This document shows positions 6,401-13,740 of a DNA stretch of 64,000 nt, in pieces. This DNA is from Olivibacter sitiensis DSM 17696 (GTDB lineage: Bacteria > Bacteroidota > Bacteroidia > Sphingobacteriales > Sphingobacteriaceae). Under the pieces are notes generated by a model. That model did not search any database. It saw nothing but the letters and a program-made list of their open reading frames with translations, and was not told where the DNA came from. Each line of letters starts with the position of its first letter. The first letter of the stretch is position 1. The translations under genes and the position numbers were made by a program. The DNA lies in NCBI RefSeq assembly GCF_000427965.1, contig NZ_ATZA01000014.1, forward strand, positions 1-64,000. Reading direction: 5' to 3'.

Positions 6401-9031
6401 CTAATTTCCGACATTGAACAGCAACTTGGCCATAATTACCCTGCCCATTTGTGGTACTCTGGAACTTTGTATCCCGCTAGCCGCCCTTACGCCTGGCGAA
6501 TAGTAGAATCTATCCGTAAGGTTTGTCCCCGATAGCTGCAGGCTTGCCTGGCGGAGCATTTTATAGGTAAGACTTCCGTTAATTAAGAGATATCCAGGAG
6601 TTTTGGTGTATGGACTGGCACTGATGGTCGTATTTGACCCAACAGGCTTATCTCCTACGAAGTTTGCCCGCAGATTGACGTTCAGCTTGTCTTCCATCAG
6701 TGACAGGTTGATGCCCACATTTGCCGATAGGTCGGCTATGTCCCCTACTCGGATCTTTCTTTCCGCTCCATCTACGTTTCTAATGCTCTTGGGATTTGCC
6801 CAAGTTGCGTTAGCATATAGGTCTATTTGTTTGTTAAATTCATATTGTCCGGAAAGTTGGATGCCCTGGAGATGCGATTGACCAATAGCTTGATATTGGG
6901 TAGTACTGATACCCATCGTATCCACATTTACCGTGCCCAGGATATTGTTATAGGAAGCATTGTAGTAAGCGATTTCCAGGGAAGTTTTGCTTGAGAGCAG
7001 GTACCTGGCAGACAATTCCCTGTTTTTTACCCTTTCTGGTTCCAGTGTGGGGTTGTTGATGAGACGGGCAGACGATATGGCAAATTTATTGTACACGGAA
7101 GCATCTAGAAAGGCTTCTGAATAAATAGCCTTAAAGATAAAGCGTCCGGGATAATAGATGGCTGTTACCCTCGGATTGAATACCGATCCATAGCCATAAA
7201 TGCTATTGATTCTATTGTTATCTAGTCGTCCACCGGCGGAGATGTTCAATTTTTTGGCTTCGTTTTGATAGCTCAGTTGTCCATACACCCCTAAATCGAG
7301 AATGGAGTAGTAGTTGCCTCCAGCAATGCTGTCACTTGCCACCCCATGGGTGATGGGATCAGGGACAGTGGCGTTGACATAATCGCCCTGCAACAAGCCG
7401 TTCCTGATCTCAACGCCCATATTGAGGTCCATTTTTTCATTGATAGTATAATTGAACCTGTTCTCCATACGGAATTGCTTGGATTGTTGGGAGTAGTAAT
7501 TGGGACGAAAATAGGGCATGTCGCCTTGCATTAGATCTACGAAACCAAGCCCACCATTTGCAAATCCATAATACCTGGTGGTGACGGTGTTTTTCCCGAA
7601 GTCACTTGTTCTGAAATAGGTGAAGTGGGAGAAAGAGAGGCGATTGAAGAGGTTGCGATCATATCGAACATAATAATTGTGCTGTCTTACCTCCCACTTG
7701 GAGAGGTCGGAATTGAGCGCATAATAGAGATCGGTATAGTCTGGCCCCGCGCCTTCAGACCAATATTGGTAATCCAGTCCTATTTTGATATCTCCAAAAT
7801 TTACTTTGGCAGAGATGTAATTGTCGTTAACGATATCGCTAAATTTATGGCTGAAGTTGCCATAGCCTTGATGGTAAAGCGATTGATCTAATGAATCGGC
7901 AAGGGATATGGCCCTGGCCGTCGGGACCAGTAGAGAACCATCTGCGCTGGTAGTGAACAATTCCCCCTGCGGGTCATAGGTAGCGTATTGCGCCGCCAGT
8001 TCTGGCGAATAGTTGGCGGAGAATCTGTTGAAGTAGTTGTTTGCGCCAAAATAATCTGACTGCCATTGTCCGTCCCAATCGGGAAATGAGGAAAGATCTG
8101 TGTCGTGCCCCTTAAATCGGCGCGCGGTGATGGCCACGAAGAGGTCTTTGTTCTTTGCACTGAACGTGGCGTCGCCAAAATGATTTCCACCATTGGCAAT
8201 GCCTGCCTGTCCCGTGAGCAGATACCTGCTTTTTTCATCATTGCTCGGCTGATTTATGGCATCTTGGTCAAAATAATCCTCAGCGGTTTTGGTGATGACA
8301 TTCACCACTCCAGTGAAGGCATTGGCACCGTAAATGGTGGAGGCGGGACCATATATAATCTCCACTCGTTTTATGTTGCTCAGTGGGTATTGCCTGGATA
8401 TGAACGCCGCGTTGGACCACATCTCATTGTTCTCCACCCCATCAATTAACAACAAGGTACGGTCTGTATTGGCGGCCGATCGATAACCTCGTTGGTACAT
8501 CACGGCATAGGAAAGTCCCGATGTGAGCGAGATGTCAAAGCCTGGAATATCGTTGAACAATTGCTGTAGATCGGTGTATCCTCGTTTAATGATATCCTCG
8601 TCACTGATAATCTGCATGGTGGCAGGTGCCAGCTCGATGCGTTCTGCTTTCTTCGATACCGAGGAGGTGAGGTTGGCCCTCATGCGCGATCGAACATGAC
8701 CTACAGCGGTACGAAATCGATCCGGGTCTCGTATATCTGCCTCAAAATTGTTCTTTAGCAGTAGCAGTTGTACAATATGTTTGTCGGCCATTTCTATAGA
8801 GTCCATGGCTAGGTAAGACATGGAGATGAGCCGAAATGCCTGGACCTTTTCATCGAAGTTCATGGCTTTGCTGTCCAGGCAGCCCCTAAGCAGTCGGATT
8901 CCTTCCTCAAACCTACCTATTTCATAAAGCCGTTCCGCATCGCCTATGGACATAGGACCGCATTCTTGTCCAAAGCCCTTTACTAGGAGACCAAAAAGCA
9001 AACATATCGTATAAACATATTTCCTGATCAT
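6401..9031 (-). CDS. TonB-dependent outer-membrane receptor with N-terminal TPR-like segment
   Basis: This 876-residue protein has a signal peptide (about 1-21, ending KGFGQ). A short helical segment (about 25-110, TPR-like: DAERLYEIGRFEEGIRLL) takes the place of the usual carboxypeptidase-like domain. The plug follows (about 130-250: PATMQIISDEDI, TLLLIDGVENNEMW, IEIIYGPASTIYGANAFTGV). The rest is a beta-barrel ending in VIMAKLLFNVGN, a typical barrel signal. It is not a SusC type and has no SusD partner. Its start overlaps the stop of the STAND gene by one base (TAATG), which implies translational coupling. Its presence in an operon with TIR and STAND proteins is unusual. Confidence 0.88.
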   Translation of the reverse strand: MIRKYVYTICLLFGLLVKGFGQECGPMSIGDAERLYEIGRFEEGIRLLRGCLDSKAMNFDEKVQAFRLISMSYLAMDSIEMADKHIVQLLLLKNNFEADIRDPDRFRTAVGHVRSRMRANLTSSVSKKAERIELAPATMQIISDEDIIKRGYTDLQQLFNDIPGFDISLTSGLSYAVMYQRGYRSAANTDRTLLLIDGVENNEMWSNAAFISRQYPLSNIKRVEIIYGPASTIYGANAFTGVVNVITKTAEDYFDQDAINQPSNDEKSRYLLTGQAGIANGGNHFGDATFSAKNKDLFVAITARRFKGHDTDLSSFPDWDGQWQSDYFGANNYFNRFSANYSPELAAQYATYDPQGELFTTSADGSLLVPTARAISLADSLDQSLYHQGYGNFSHKFSDIVNDNYISAKVNFGDIKIGLDYQYWSEGAGPDYTDLYYALNSDLSKWEVRQHNYYVRYDRNLFNRLSFSHFTYFRTSDFGKNTVTTRYYGFANGGLGFVDLMQGDMPYFRPNYYSQQSKQFRMENRFNYTINEKMDLNMGVEIRNGLLQGDYVNATVPDPITHGVASDSIAGGNYYSILDLGVYGQLSYQNEAKKLNISAGGRLDNNRINSIYGYGSVFNPRVTAIYYPGRFIFKAIYSEAFLDASVYNKFAISSARLINNPTLEPERVKNRELSARYLLSSKTSLEIAYYNASYNNILGTVNVDTMGISTTQYQAIGQSHLQGIQLSGQYEFNKQIDLYANATWANPKSIRNVDGAERKIRVGDIADLSANVGINLSLMEDKLNVNLRANFVGDKPVGSNTTISASPYTKTPGYLLINGSLTYKMLRQASLQLSGTNLTDRFYYSPGVRAASGIQSSRVPQMGRVIMAKLLFNVGN

Positions 9032-12000
9032 TATTGACGTATATTGTTGCTTAGAGATACCGACAAAATAACTTCCCGATTTTCTTCTGGAAACTTCACC
9101 AAAGTTGTGCGAACGGCCATAGCAGAGGCAAACTTTGGTGAAGTTTTTAAGCTTCGAATTAGGGAAGTTATTTTGTCAAGATTACTTAGACGCAGTTCAT
9201 TAAAAAGACTAGCCATATTCGTATAATAGCCTATGATGTTCCTGTCCTCACTGCAGGAATAAATATTGCTGCCATTCGCCGTATAGGCTATTCCGTACAC
9301 CCATTGATTATGTCCTTTGATAGACAATACGTTTTCAGTCGTGTTCCTGGTCGTGATCAGATGGTTGAAGTCCCACAATTTGACGGTCTGGTCGCTACTG
9401 GCTGTCGCTAATTGTACATGATCATGGCGACCCGGCCGGAATTGTATGTCATTAATGGCCGAAGCATGCAGATTGAGAAATATCGGATTGCTATCCTTTT
9501 TGATGTTCTTCACCCAAAGGCGGCCGTCGGTACAGCCAGCCAACAGGTAAGTCTCCGATGGATCGATGGCAATGCTGCTGATTCTTGCTTTTATCTCGTA
9601 CATGGCCTTTGGTGTATCTGGTATGTCCTGGCCTTTTTCATAATAAAATATTTTATTGCTGGTGGACAGGAAAACGCCCTCCTTGGTTGTGGTCAGATCG
9701 GTTAGGTTATTGGTAGGAGTGTAAGTTTGCTGTACGATTCCAGTAGGTGTGCTTTGGAAGGAGGCTACGCCAGCATTGCTAATGGCAATTAGCTTACCGT
9801 CTGGTGAGTAAACAACAGCCTTGCCAATTCCCTGTATTTTGCTCCGATATTTTTCCTGTAATGCGCCTGTTTTCTTTTGCAATTGGTAGGTGATAATCGT
9901 TCCACTGGCTGTGATTACGGTGAAGTCGTTGGTCGCTTGCATAGGCACTATGGAACGGATATCTTCGCGTAGGTTCTGGCTGTTTAGCATGGTGAGCCGT
10001 CCATTGTTGGTTTGCGAAATGATCAATCTGCCCGATTCGTCTCCAGATATAATGAGTTGAGCGTCAGTATGAAAAACAATGGATTTTATAGGGGCTTGGT
10101 GTCTGCTGAAGCGATTTTCAAATTGGATTTGATTTTCCCAGTTTTTGTAAAGTGCAGCGTAGATGTCATTGTCTTGCTCTGCACCTTGATTGTTCTTGTT
10201 TAAGGTGTAGGCCTGTAGGGCCATTTGCTTGCTTTCATCATAGAGATGTTCATCCAATTTTACCAAAGCCTCGTAGGCGAGATTATGGGCAAGGGCCAAA
10301 TCTTTGAGCCTGGAGGAAAGCTGTGTTTGCTCCTTGGCTATTTGTTCGTTCTGCTGGGCCAGGCCTGTTTGGCGTTGTGCTATTTCTTGTTGCTGTTGGG
10401 CCAGTCTGGCATTTCTCTCGGCAACGCTTCGCTGATCGAATGCGTATAGCCGTTGTTCATCGGCAATGTTTTTTTGCGCAAGAGCCTCTTTCTCCTTGCT
10501 TTCGGCCCGTTTGGTCTCTTCCAGTGCAAATTCCTTTTGAATGAGCGCTTGCTCCTTGTTCTCCTCTGCAATCTGTTGTTGCCGTAGCGCTTCTTCGCGC
10601 TGTTCCAGGGCCTCTTTTCCCCTGTTTTCAGCTATAGCCGTCTGCCTATTGGCCTCGTTGCGCAGCTCAAAAGAATAAATGGCAAGGAATATGGCAGCCA
10701 AGGCTATCAGGGAAATAATTCCTACCGTTCGGCGTGCGCGAAATAATTTTTGTTTCTGAAGTTTCTCCTTATGTTCTATCTCGAGGATATATTGTTGCTT
10801 GCTATGTTCCAGAAACAGCATGGCCTTTTCGTACAGTTCATTATACCTGCTAGCCCACACCTTGTTTGGCTTGTGTTCTTCTTGCCACTTGAGGGCCAGT
10901 TGCAATTCTGGACCGCTCAGCAGTGCGCCGCTTCCTATTTCATAGTGTTGTGCAGATTCGCATAGGCGAAGATAGATTTGTCTAGACTCGTTTTCATCTT
11001 CAACCCAGGCAATAAGTCGTTCCCATACCCGCATTAGGCTTTCGTGGGAGATGTCTATAATGGTATCGGGTGCAAGCGGGACGATATAGGGCGGCATAAG
11101 AAAAGCCCTTCCGTTTTTTCTGAAAACCTCTATGACGTGAATCAGCTCGTCAATGGAGCATTCGGCCAGTGCGGCAATTTCCTTCAACTCCCTGGGCCGT
11201 CTGATGCCTGCACTGTTGATACCCTTGTCGGTGAGTGCCTTGAACATGATTTGGCAAATATGACGTTGCTGATCGTCACCCAATTCGCCATAGGCCTCTT
11301 CGGCGTGTAAGGAGAGGGCTTGCTGCATGGTACCTATGCGTTCATAATCGTCTACGTCAATAGGTGGTGGATCCTGTTCATTCGCTTCGCTCGAGTACCA
11401 CAGGTCCCAGGTTCTCATGAGGGCATGTTGCAGTATCGGTAATTGGTCGGGGTTGTCCCCCATATCGTTGAGCAATAAGTTGAGCAACCTGTTGCTGATG
11501 TGGCCTCCAGCCACGGCAATTGGGCCACTTATGGCTTCCTTGCGTTCATCTCGGGTCATTCTGGGCACCAAGTATTGACCTTGGTTGATGGCTTCTGGAA
11601 GCCCCCTGAATTCGGTACATTCGCCCAAGAAATCCGAACGCATGGTTAGCACCACATAAATGGGGTACTGACTTTGGTTGACGGCTTGCAGCAATAGGTT
11701 GACAAAGGCTATTGAATCTCGCTTGCCCGCGCCTGCCTGTTTTTCGTACTGGCTAAAACGGAAGATTTCTTCAAATTGGTCTACTAATATCAGCAGGTTT
11801 TGGCTATGGTCTATACCCGATTGCCTATAGGCTTCTATCAGGCCATTGCCACTTCGCCGCAAGGTGCTTTCATTGATGGCCGCAAAAGTAAGATAGTCTT
11901 CATCGGGCATTTCGTCGTACAGCATACCTCCCTGCGCAAGCGCCTTGGCCAGGTTTCCTATGGGATCATTGCCTGGACGGAAGGAGCATATCTTCCAGCG

Positions 12001-12234
12001 AGAACCAGATCCAGACATGAAGCCGCTATGTAAGGCAGGGATTAAACCCGATTTTACCAAAGATGATTTCCCGCTTCCTGAAGAGCCTACTACGGCTAGG
12101 AAGCGAACTATTCTGAGCTTCTTCAGCAATTCGTCTATCTGTTTCTCCCTTCCAAAGAAGATAATGTCCTCGTGCTCTTCAAAAGCACGGAGACCTGGAA
12201 ACGGATTTATGTATGACGCTGTATCACTGTTCAT
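9031..12234 (-). CDS. nSTAND1-type NTPase with membrane helix, coiled coil and WD40 repeats
   Basis: This 1067-residue protein opens with NPFPGLRAFEE and FFGRE, the start of the novel-STAND-1 NTPase. Walker A is GSSGSGKS (50-57) and Walker B is LLILVDQFEE (147-156). A winged-helix-like region follows to about 480. A hydrophobic helix at about 505-525 suggests membrane anchoring. Residues about 528-690 are a long Glu/Gln/Ala-rich coiled coil. At least five WD40-like repeats occupy about 700-1010, for example ATASSDQTVKLWDF. STAND proteins oligomerise on ligand sensing by the repeats. The last residues, about 1020-1058, are encoded by a large palindrome. The gene starts 9 bases after the TIR gene, so they are probably partners. 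Confidence 0.9.
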   Translation of the reverse strand: MNSDTASYINPFPGLRAFEEHEDIIFFGREKQIDELLKKLRIVRFLAVVGSSGSGKSSLVKSGLIPALHSGFMSGSGSRWKICSFRPGNDPIGNLAKALAQGGMLYDEMPDEDYLTFAAINESTLRRSGNGLIEAYRQSGIDHSQNLLILVDQFEEIFRFSQYEKQAGAGKRDSIAFVNLLLQAVNQSQYPIYVVLTMRSDFLGECTEFRGLPEAINQGQYLVPRMTRDERKEAISGPIAVAGGHISNRLLNLLLNDMGDNPDQLPILQHALMRTWDLWYSSEANEQDPPPIDVDDYERIGTMQQALSLHAEEAYGELGDDQQRHICQIMFKALTDKGINSAGIRRPRELKEIAALAECSIDELIHVIEVFRKNGRAFLMPPYIVPLAPDTIIDISHESLMRVWERLIAWVEDENESRQIYLRLCESAQHYEIGSGALLSGPELQLALKWQEEHKPNKVWASRYNELYEKAMLFLEHSKQQYILEIEHKEKLQKQKLFRARRTVGIISLIALAAIFLAIYSFELRNEANRQTAIAENRGKEALEQREEALRQQQIAEENKEQALIQKEFALEETKRAESKEKEALAQKNIADEQRLYAFDQRSVAERNARLAQQQQEIAQRQTGLAQQNEQIAKEQTQLSSRLKDLALAHNLAYEALVKLDEHLYDESKQMALQAYTLNKNNQGAEQDNDIYAALYKNWENQIQFENRFSRHQAPIKSIVFHTDAQLIISGDESGRLIISQTNNGRLTMLNSQNLREDIRSIVPMQATNDFTVITASGTIITYQLQKKTGALQEKYRSKIQGIGKAVVYSPDGKLIAISNAGVASFQSTPTGIVQQTYTPTNNLTDLTTTKEGVFLSTSNKIFYYEKGQDIPDTPKAMYEIKARISSIAIDPSETYLLAGCTDGRLWVKNIKKDSNPIFLNLHASAINDIQFRPGRHDHVQLATASSDQTVKLWDFNHLITTRNTTENVLSIKGHNQWVYGIAYTANGSNIYSCSEDRNIIGYYTNMASLFNELRLSNLDKITSLIRSLKTSPKFASAMAVRTTLVKFPEENREVILSVSLSNNIRQ
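9062..9177. repeat. 116-bp nested inverted repeat in the 3' end of the STAND gene
   Basis: Outer arms 9062-9077 (GACAAAATAACTTCCC) and 9162-9177 are perfect 16-bp reverse complements. Inner arms 9091-9106 (AAACTTCACCAAAGTT) and 9131-9146 are also perfect over 16 bp. A less matched spacer lies between them, and the loop is 24 bases. The unit lies within the last 50 codons of the STAND-WD40 gene and ends 30 bases before the TonB receptor start. In the mRNA it would fold into a very stable stem. It could be a palindromic insertion that became coding, or an RNA element that tunes downstream expression. Confidence 0.85.
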
Positions 12235-12243
12235 GTCCTTGCT

Positions 12244-13740
12244 CTATAGTTTGGATAATAACTGTTTCAACTGTTGCTCTGGAAGTCCTGATAATCCATT
12301 TATAACTTCGGCTCCCAAGCTTCTGAGGCGCGTCTTGGCCGTACTTTCGGGCGGTGCCACGTAGATGGCCTTCAGGGCTATAGGGCTTGTTCTTCCATAT
12401 CCGTTGATTTTCATGAAATCGCGCATTTTCGACCGTAGCCAAAATTCACTGGCATCTTTGTAGAAGATAATTGCCCCTTTGCATGTCTTCAGGTTTTCGA
12501 TATGGTCTTCCCTGATGACCGACTCATCTCCCTCAAACATGGGGATGACCACCTCAAATCCCTGGTCGAAAAGAAAATCTTCCAAAGGAGCTATGGCTTC
12601 CACATCCTGCATATCACAAATGAGGTAGATAAGCTTTGCCTCGCTATCTACAGGCGTTGCGGGCTGCGAAAGGACTTCCTTTTCCTTGATGAAGCGAAGC
12701 TTGTCCATCACCACTGCCTTAAAATCTTCCAACGTACTTTGTACCAAGTCGGCTCCGACGATACCATCTGCCCCCCTATTCAGCCTGTTTATGAAGGCCA
12801 TCTGCCTTTCATCGTGGGGGTCGCATCCTTCTGGGATCCATATCAGCCTAGAGATATTGGTGGTGGCACTGTGCGCTGACGCGATTTCGTTTTGAATCTC
12901 CACGATAGACTTTTGGCTTCCTTCGGGTACTACGCCGTAATTTTCGCCGATCAAATGAATGGAAAGGGTCGATTCTCCCAGGTATTTTTTGACGCTCTCG
13001 TGCAATGGGGGAGCCATCAGCGGAAGCTGCTTGTCTGGAAATATTTGGTACCCGAAATCTTGCAGTTCTCTCTTGAGGCTGTCTCTGAACTCTTGCGTGT
13101 CATAACTGGATTCTGCTAAGAATACCTTGGTTTTCTGTGATACGGTAGACTTTAGAGCGTTGGGTTGGGAAGAGGTGCTAACGGCTATGGGTTCACTCAA
13201 ACTCTCCAAAAAGGCACAGATATCGTGAGCCAGATCGTCCAGTTTTTCCCAATAGGCCATTTCGCTCTGTTGCCCAAAAGCTTGGTTATATTCTTTTATC
13301 CGGCCAGTGGACGGGTCTACATGGTAAAACTCATAGCCGAGCACGTTTTGGATTTTTTCCGGATGTTGTTCTATTCGGACAGGCGTTTTAATTATCTTAA
13401 AGATTCTTGCTCTGTTGTTTATATTAAATCCAATATTCTGTTGACATTTCTCGTAAAACTCATCTACCTCCCTGAGGCACCATTCCGACTTCACATACCG
13501 GGGAGTCAGAATGGAGATCATGATCGCCACTTCATGGAATTGATCGAGTATCTGCTGGTCGAATAGGTGGTTACCCTGCAAGGCGGGGTCGCGCCATATT
13601 ACCGGTCGTCTCCCAAGCAGCTGTGCCAGACGGATATCTAGCGCCCGATGAAACTCGGAGATCCAACCTTTTTGATTGACAATCAACGATTCGTCATCTA
13701 TATGGGCATAACTGATAAAGAGATCTGTTTTGAATGTCAT
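12244..13740 (-). CDS. TIR-domain protein with two further TIR-like/DUF4062-like domains
   Basis: This 498-residue protein lacks signal and membrane segments. Domain 1 (about 3-130) is a clear TIR domain: DLFISYAHIDDES, VIWRDPALQGN, ILTPRYVKSEWCLREVDEF. E91 sits where NAD-cleaving TIRs carry their catalytic Glu. Domain 2 (about 205-335: KTKVFLAESSYDTQEFRDSL, LSIHLIGENYG) resembles DUF4062/TIR-like folds. Domain 3 (about 365-470: LIYLICDMQDVE, CKGAIIFYKDASEFW) is another alpha/beta TIR-like unit. It lies between the TrkA/RyR gene (22-base gap) and the STAND gene (9-base gap). The likely role is effector or adaptor of the STAND sensor, with NAD cleavage or signal production inferred from the TIR domain only. 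Confidence 0.85.
   Translation of the reverse strand: MTFKTDLFISYAHIDDESLIVNQKGWISEFHRALDIRLAQLLGRRPVIWRDPALQGNHLFDQQILDQFHEVAIMISILTPRYVKSEWCLREVDEFYEKCQQNIGFNINNRARIFKIIKTPVRIEQHPEKIQNVLGYEFYHVDPSTGRIKEYNQAFGQQSEMAYWEKLDDLAHDICAFLESLSEPIAVSTSSQPNALKSTVSQKTKVFLAESSYDTQEFRDSLKRELQDFGYQIFPDKQLPLMAPPLHESVKKYLGESTLSIHLIGENYGVVPEGSQKSIVEIQNEIASAHSATTNISRLIWIPEGCDPHDERQMAFINRLNRGADGIVGADLVQSTLEDFKAVVMDKLRFIKEKEVLSQPATPVDSEAKLIYLICDMQDVEAIAPLEDFLFDQGFEVVIPMFEGDESVIREDHIENLKTCKGAIIFYKDASEFWLRSKMRDFMKINGYGRTSPIALKAIYVAPPESTAKTRLRSLGAEVINGLSGLPEQQLKQLLSKL

What the first reader, a model, noticed from the sequence alone, without database searches (positions are those of the whole stretch)
9062..9177. 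Nested 16-bp palindromes in the STAND gene's 3' end that read alike on both strands
Two perfect 16-bp arm pairs are nested within 116 bp. Because of the symmetry both strands encode peptides that begin DKITS and end REVILS. The unit encodes residues about 1020-1058, after the WD40 region, and ends 30 bases before the TonB receptor start. It could be a mobile palindromic unit that added a C-terminal tail, or an mRNA structure that sets the ratio of STAND to receptor.
Basis: seen in the sequence. Interest (0 to 1): 0.65.

Follow-up and report, generated by a model that had tools for sequence, protein, structure and literature searches.

The report
In-frame palindromic repeat lengthens STAND protein
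A short folded DNA repeat that is scattered about two dozen times through this bacterium's genome, mostly between genes, has landed inside the very end of one gene without breaking it, and so appears to have given the protein a new tail of about 45 amino acids.

Summary
The palindromes are real: the only two perfect 16-bp inverted repeats with spacers up to 150 bp in the 64-kb window, nested at 9062-9177. They are one copy of a dispersed family. A model of the inner core finds 24 places in this genome (150 of 2361 candidates scored) and none in four same-genus genomes. Sixteen of 24 cores lie within 60 nt downstream of an ORF's 3' end. The window copy is the only one found enclosed end to end in an ORF with a recognised domain. 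The four closest STAND homologues (51-55% identity, a like receptor gene next door) end 11-12 residues after a shared methionine; the window protein runs 60. Removing the 135 bp between two CTAAG repeats gives a homologue-like end with the same TAATG overlap. An mRNA role is untested. In-frame palindromes are known from Rickettsia and Coxiella: a new member of a known kind. The inner loop is inverted relative to its flanks in some copies. What mobilised the family is unknown; the one RAYT gene found carries a different repeat.

The parts
9050..9189 (-). Whole inserted unit as best bounded: direct CTAAG at 9185-9189 and 9050-9054 (minus strand); the two repeats start 135 bp (45 codons) apart
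   Evidence: removing 135 bp gives a homologue-like end and the same TAATG overlap; ends compared
9062..9082 (.). Outer arm, one side (16 bp perfect, 21 nt at 90%)
9157..9177 (.). Outer arm, other side
9091..9106 (.). Inner arm, one side; part of the 58-nt core found at 24 genomic places
9131..9146 (.). Inner arm, other side
9107..9130 (.). 24-nt loop; the matching loop is inverted relative to its flanks in some other copies
9031..12234 (-). nSTAND1-WD40 protein gene (1067 aa) interrupted near its end by the unit; by the 135-bp model residues 1016-1060 are added, followed by LSNNIRQ
6401..9031 (-). TonB-dependent receptor gene; its ATG overlaps the STAND stop (TAATG); a gene with a like N-terminus follows STAND in the homologous loci read
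12244..13740 (-). TIR / DUF4062 gene upstream of STAND; a like gene precedes STAND in the three g21 homologous loci

Best explanation
The 116-bp nested palindrome is the centre of a roughly 130-140-bp REP/MITE-like repeat present in 24 or more intact and decayed copies in this genome. Its usual home is the gap just downstream of genes. One copy inserted into the last codons of the STAND gene. The insertion adds 135 bp (45 codons), is open in the frame it fell into, and leaves the original last residues, the stop and the stop/start overlap with the TonB receptor in place, so it lengthened the protein by 45 residues without cutting the operon. Shown: family, copy number, locations, absence of the tail in the closest homologues, the frame arithmetic. 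Inferred: the exact boundaries, that the copy arrived by transposition, perhaps by single-strand (HUH/Y1-type) processing of the hairpin, and that the tail is tolerated rather than needed.
For: 24 distinct places in the own genome with the core model and 18 by BLAST; 0 of 4 same-genus genomes with the model. 16 of 24 cores lie within 60 nt downstream of an ORF 3' end, 6 of them between convergent ORFs, while about 92% of the window is covered by ORFs. Four closest STAND homologues (L027-L029, L093; 51-55%) end 11-12 residues after the shared methionine, with the next ATG 2 nt past the stop. Removing the 135 bp gives ...NMASLFNELRLSNNIRQ*. Hairpin arms co-vary across 24 copies: 91.6% of cells paired, 0 of 500 shuffles as high; pair 8-57 is T-A in 13 and C-G in 7, with 2 T-G and 2 unpaired.
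Against: No consistent target-site duplication: a CTAAG pair flanks only this copy among those compared, and both ends resemble the family's own ends, so the insertion length rests on parsimony. No parent element: 12 of 15 outer-arm sites belong to known copies and the other 3 are single sites, against 1 control match. The one RAYT gene found is flanked by a different repeat. No strain without the insertion was available. Three more distant homologues (33-39%) have a different tail of about 60 residues, so C-terminal length varies anyway. Two of the five co-variation measures are passed by a slid control.
Confidence: 0.85

Rival explanations
1. The palindrome is kept because its mRNA hairpin between the STAND and receptor coding regions sets their relative expression (ribosome slowing, RNase III cutting, or protection of the upstream message).
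For: Very stable fold (-53.1 kcal/mol, z -7.9); position 30 nt before the receptor start; arms co-vary in the family; family copies sit at gene 3' ends.
Against: The segment is inside a translated frame; no terminator-like site in 8900-9400, in a scan limited to loops of 3-8 nt; the four closest homologous gene pairs do without it; co-variation can arise from hairpin-templated repair without RNA function (inference).
Confidence: 0.2
2. The unit is moved in trans by the genome's REP-associated tyrosine transposase (RAYT, L025), i.e. it is an atypical REP-type repeat.
For: One RAYT gene above the NCBIfam cut-off; it carries NHVH, WQ and YLHQNP, near the subclass 2.6 motifs printed in PMC6006769, a mainly Bacteroidetes subclass with atypical flanking structures lacking the GT[AG]G consensus; its flanking 148-nt unit also contains inverted-repeat hairpins; loop similarity to this family reached by 24 of 2000 shuffles of one of three flanking hairpins.
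Against: The RAYT's own flanking repeat has different stems, and a genome search with it hit none of the 24 places; loop similarity is weak.
Confidence: 0.3
3. Ordinary coding sequence: the tail is native to the protein and the palindrome is chance or convergent.
For: Frame is open and ends in a normal stop/start overlap.
Against: The core occurs at 23 other places, mostly outside ORFs; tail absent from the four closest homologues; 0 of 20 resamples gave any 16-bp inverted repeat.
Confidence: 0.02
4. The inner core is an invertible switch: flipping it in the window copy would end the STAND frame early, giving two tail lengths in a population.
For: In four tandem paralogous sites on C42 with like flanks, one of four loops is inverted; L006 and L008 carry the core inverted relative to the unit's ends, unlike L001-L004 and L007; inverted in silico, the window core brings a stop into the frame.
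Against: The inversions seen are between copies, not within one site; no recombinase search or read data examined; slow hairpin-templated inversion would explain them.
Confidence: 0.05

Closest known systems
Rickettsia palindromic elements (RPE)
   Same: Repeated palindromic units inserted in frame within ORFs (as stated in passages of PMC3733652 and PMC6649704)
   Different: Here one of 24 copies is in a domain-bearing ORF and most others lie between genes; host looks like a Bacteroidota species rather than Rickettsia (phylum recalled from the protein types, not from a call); sequences were not compared
QMITE2 of Coxiella burnetii, C-terminal extension of EnhC (PMC5896051, passages)
   Same: Repeat of 150-190 bp, mainly 3' of genes and intergenic; an in-frame copy at a gene's 3' end presumably supplies the C-terminal 33 residues in one strain
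   Different: QMITE2 has direct repeats of 7-11 nt and contains a GTAG REP; no such direct repeat was seen as a family trait here, and no GT[AG]G in the window copy
REP / BIME / REPIN repeats with RAYT
   Same: Hairpin repeats mainly downstream of genes, some inside genes (PMC3733652 abstract and passages); in-frame REPs inside tnpAREP subclass 2.4 genes (PMC6006769 section 13)
   Different: No GT[AG]G foot in the window copy; cognate RAYT not identified
Coding inverted repeats of nematomorph mitochondria (PMC6649704, passages)
   Same: Both arms of the palindrome lie in coding sequence
   Different: There the arms encode conserved protein regions; here a tail absent from the closest homologues

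Membership tests
Canonical REP (RAYT-associated) | GT[AG]G tetranucleotide at the hairpin foot | tested here: not met
   none in 9045-9195 on either strand; other copies not scanned for it
Canonical REP (RAYT-associated) | Copies flank a RAYT gene (REPtron) | tested here: not met
   the one RAYT locus found carries a different repeat; a draft assembly could hide another
Canonical REP (RAYT-associated) | Palindromic, multicopy, mostly extragenic at gene 3' ends | tested here: met
   24 places, 16 within 60 nt of an ORF 3' end
MITE | Terminal inverted repeats, 70-300 bp, no coding capacity of its own (wording of PMC3733652) | tested here: met
   16-bp perfect outer arms, about 130-140 bp; five copies with both arms at 0-1 mismatch and a sixth, C57, with degenerate arms
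MITE | Target-site duplication | tested here: inconclusive
   CTAAG pair at the window copy only
MITE | Parent insertion sequence with the same ends | tested here: not met
   no pair of outer-arm sites (0-1 mismatch) around a larger body in this assembly; more diverged ends not searched
In-frame coding palindrome (RPE-like behaviour) | Repeat inserted in an ORF without breaking it | tested here: met
   open frame, 45 codons, four closest homologues lack it
In-frame coding palindrome (RPE-like behaviour) | Recurrent insertion in many different ORFs | tested here: not met
   1 of 24 copies found end to end in a domain-bearing ORF; one 76-aa ORF around another copy was not tested
In-frame coding palindrome (RPE-like behaviour) | Host protein remains functional | not testable with these tools
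   needs expression and assay

The most novel reading that the evidence does not exclude
A previously undescribed, species-restricted family of nested palindromes whose inner core flips in place, one copy of which has been recruited as an invertible C-terminal tail of a STAND protein, so that the same DNA hairpin would both alter the end of a likely immune sensor and tune the receptor gene that starts 30 nt further on.
Probability: 0.05. Interest if true: 0.8.

Novelty: new member of a known kind. Interest (0 to 1): 0.42.

Why it matters
It is a clear case of a hairpin repeat becoming protein: relatives show the gene without it, two dozen sister copies show the repeat mostly outside genes, and the operon's overlapping stop and start are intact. 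It adds a case in a large-genome bacterium to those described in intracellular bacteria such as Rickettsia and Coxiella. The sister copies with inverted cores give material for asking how palindromes flip and keep their arms matched.

Tried and rejected
Rfam over 8500-9700: only two chance-level matches, both below gathering score. Named scans: 51 pattern stretches but no relative of STAND in genome contigs, and no exact match to the core pattern in genome contigs or viral contigs; the tool says the own genome may be left out of these. The weak BLAST hit in G002 (E 8e-4, 34 nt) falls at the start of an ORF and was judged chance. The weak model hits in G031, G036 and G015 (E 1.5e-4 to 8e-3, 37 nt) were not read further. 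A strict loop pattern found only three members of the same family. Coding-friendly design of the unit was rejected: three open frames is met by 293 of 2000 palindrome-preserving shuffles, though by only 45 of 2000 plain ones. The AlphaFold model of the last 378 residues (4-sequence alignment; the five models' mean pLDDT runs from 48 to 78) is confident for the propeller in the best model, but the last seven 10-residue blocks have pLDDT 36-66; as no other sequence in the alignment carries the tail, this says little about its fold. PADLOC: no hit for STAND or the receptor, one weak hit (18 bits) for the TIR gene. A search for a named STAND/TIR/TonB system listed three papers, none with the TonB term; listing only, not read. 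The 2002 Rickettsia palindrome paper is not held; RPE statements come from passages of other papers.

Full report
What is there. On the minus strand the window carries a TIR/DUF4062 gene (12244-13740), an nSTAND1-WD40 gene (9031-12234, 1067 aa) and a TonB-dependent receptor gene (6401-9031). The last part of the STAND gene contains two nested, perfect 16-bp inverted repeats, outer arms 9062-9077 / 9162-9177 and inner arms 9091-9106 / 9131-9146. They are the only perfect 16-bp inverted repeats with a spacer up to 150 bp in the window, and 20 Markov resamples gave none. As single-stranded RNA the region folds at -53.1 kcal/mol (z -7.9, 0 of 200 shuffles as low) and as DNA at -32 kcal/mol (z -7.5, 0 of 200).

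A dispersed family. BLAST of 9040-9200 against the own genome (5.05 Mb, 110 contigs) gave 23 matches at 18 distinct places. A covariance model of the 58-nt inner core, built from 18 copies, gave 44 matches, which are 24 distinct places (20 of them also match on the other strand). Only 150 of 2361 first-look candidates were scored, so 24 is a lower bound. By BLAST 1 of 40 relatives had a match, a weak one (E 8e-4, 34 nt) in G002, one of the four same-genus genomes. With the model, 0 of 4 same-genus genomes and 3 of 26 other relatives had one, all three 37 nt long and weak; there too only 150 candidates per genome were scored. Six copies keep both outer arms: C16, C30:25142, C46, C78:82978 and C78:110082, and C57 with degenerate arms. 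Others keep one arm, traces or only the core.

Where the copies lie. I read the surroundings of all 24 (ORFs of at least 70 aa called mechanically, no curated annotation; tallied by eye from that table). Sixteen of 24 cores are within 60 nt downstream of an ORF 3' end; six of these lie between convergent ORFs. Six of 24, the window copy included, overlap some mechanical ORF. In C46 and C32 the recognised domain starts at ORF residue 31 or 53, after the unit, so the true start is probably later. In C78:82978 one ORF matches an acetyltransferase family only from residue 107 and below its cut-off, and the other, of 105 aa, has no Pfam match. In C38 a 146-aa ORF has no Pfam match. In C30:25142 a 76-aa ORF, not tested against Pfam, runs through the unit. 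Only the window copy was found enclosed end to end in an ORF with a recognised domain. About 92% of the window is covered by ORFs of at least 100 aa, so the family as a whole avoids genes.

The gene before the insertion. In 121 family genomes (own included) 62 matched the STAND query at E <= 0.001, most over a small part only; five besides the own genome matched at E <= 1e-100. In a second, overlapping sample of 300 genomes of the order, 8 including the own matched at E <= 1e-50. I read the gene end and junction in seven loci (an eighth, L031, runs off the fetched stretch). The four closest (L027, L028, L029, L093; 51-55% identity) end ...TSMAGIYKSLTTDKN* or similar, 11-12 residues after the methionine shared with the window protein, which itself runs 60 residues past it. 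The next ATG lies 2 nt past the stop and opens an ORF whose N-terminus resembles the window receptor's (judged by eye; no family search was run on it). The three g21 loci also have a TIR-like ORF upstream resembling the window's (by eye). None of the four has the 45-residue segment. Three distant homologues (L030, L094, L095; 33-39%) have a different tail of about 60 residues; L030's does not align with the window's (the other two were not compared). In the window, CTAAG occurs at 9185-9189 and again at 9050-9054 (minus strand), 135 bp apart. Without those 135 bp the protein would end ...YYTNMASLFNELRLSNNIRQ* and the stop would overlap the receptor start as it does now. The simplest history is one in-frame insertion of 45 codons (residues 1016-1060). 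CTAAG is not proven as a target duplication: none of the other copies whose ends I compared shows a matching pair, and both ends look like the family's own.

Arms and loop. Across the 24 cores the stem stays paired in 91.6% of cells (0 of 500 shuffles as high), and the covariation score (0.123) is above all 500 shuffles and all six slid controls. Against this, the number of pairs changed on both sides (6; 1 of 500 shuffles) is passed by one slid control (7), and the number of further pair types (12; 10 of 500 shuffles) by another (14). Pair 15-50 is unpaired in 7 copies. Relatedness can also inflate the scores. The 8-57 pair switching between T-A (13) and C-G (7) is the clearest sign of matched arms. 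On C42 four tandem paralogous ORFs (they look like ABC permeases; recalled, not searched) each carry a core in like flanks, and in one of the four the loop is inverted (alignment scores with the other three -4 to -2.5 forward and 2 to 8 inverted; 16 to 26 forward among the other three). L006 and L008 also have the core inverted relative to the unit's ends, unlike L001-L004 and L007. So the core can flip, presumably by hairpin-templated repair or strand switching (inference).

What moves it. One Y1/RAYT gene was found in the genome. Its NHVH, WQ and YLHQNP motifs are close to subclass 2.6 as tabulated in PMC6006769, mainly Bacteroidetes, with atypical flanking structures that also occur elsewhere in the genome (passages, and sections 13 and 25 read). 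But its flanking 148-nt unit is a different repeat, a search with it hit none of the 24 places, and the loop resemblance is weak: 24 of 2000 shuffles as good for one of three flanking hairpins; the other two (scores 17 and 20 against 19) were not shuffled. No pair of outer-arm sites encloses a larger body, so no parent insertion sequence was found. The canonical REP foot is absent from the window copy. I therefore call the unit REP/MITE-like and file it under neither.

Known precedents. In-frame palindromes in Rickettsia genes (passages of PMC3733652 and PMC6649704), in-frame REPs in tnpAREP genes (PMC6006769), and the Coxiella QMITE2 unit that presumably supplies the last 33 residues of EnhC in one strain (PMC5896051 passages). 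The last is the closest in form: a mainly 3'-flanking palindrome that became a C-terminal tail. The listings of my literature searches showed no description of this family, but they cover open-licence papers only and the organism's name is not known to me.

Effect. Translation through the unit is expected from the open frame; protein data are lacking. The best structure model is confident for the propeller and not for the tail (pLDDT 36-66), which says little because no other sequence in the alignment has the tail. An effect of the hairpin on expression of the receptor remains possible and untested. The most likely reading is a tolerated, selectively near-neutral extension (inference).

Noticed in passing
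L088 (G000:C42:2500-15500): Four tandem paralogous ORFs (ABC-permease-like by recall) each with a core copy just past the 3' end in like flanks; the loop of one (L088:10162-10219) is inverted relative to the other three.
   Followed up: partly
L025:1287-2439 (G000:C15): The one RAYT gene found in the genome is flanked by its own array of 148-nt units with inverted-repeat hairpins, with further copies elsewhere in the genome.
   Followed up: partly
window 6401-13740: TIR/DUF4062, nSTAND1-WD40 and TonB receptor look like a conserved gene set in genus g21 and, for STAND and receptor, g15, but no STAND homologue was found in the four same-genus genomes: patchy, perhaps horizontally spread.
   Followed up: partly
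L020:1488-1500 and L092:2057-2066: In two copies (after a DnaJ-like ORF, name recalled, and on C1) the stop codon TAG appears to be part of the unit's own TAGTAAT-like end.
   Followed up: no
L004:1500-1890: A full copy abuts a 105-aa ORF with no Pfam match whose beginning is unit-encoded; possibly the remnant of a gene truncated at the unit.
   Followed up: no
L010, L011, L015 flanks: Another short repeat with a form like TGCCTGACGGCAGTCAGG lies near several copies.
   Followed up: no
L008:1816-2073: A copy near a contig end lies about 230 nt from the end of a DDE transposase ORF (DDE_Tnp_1_2).
   Followed up: no
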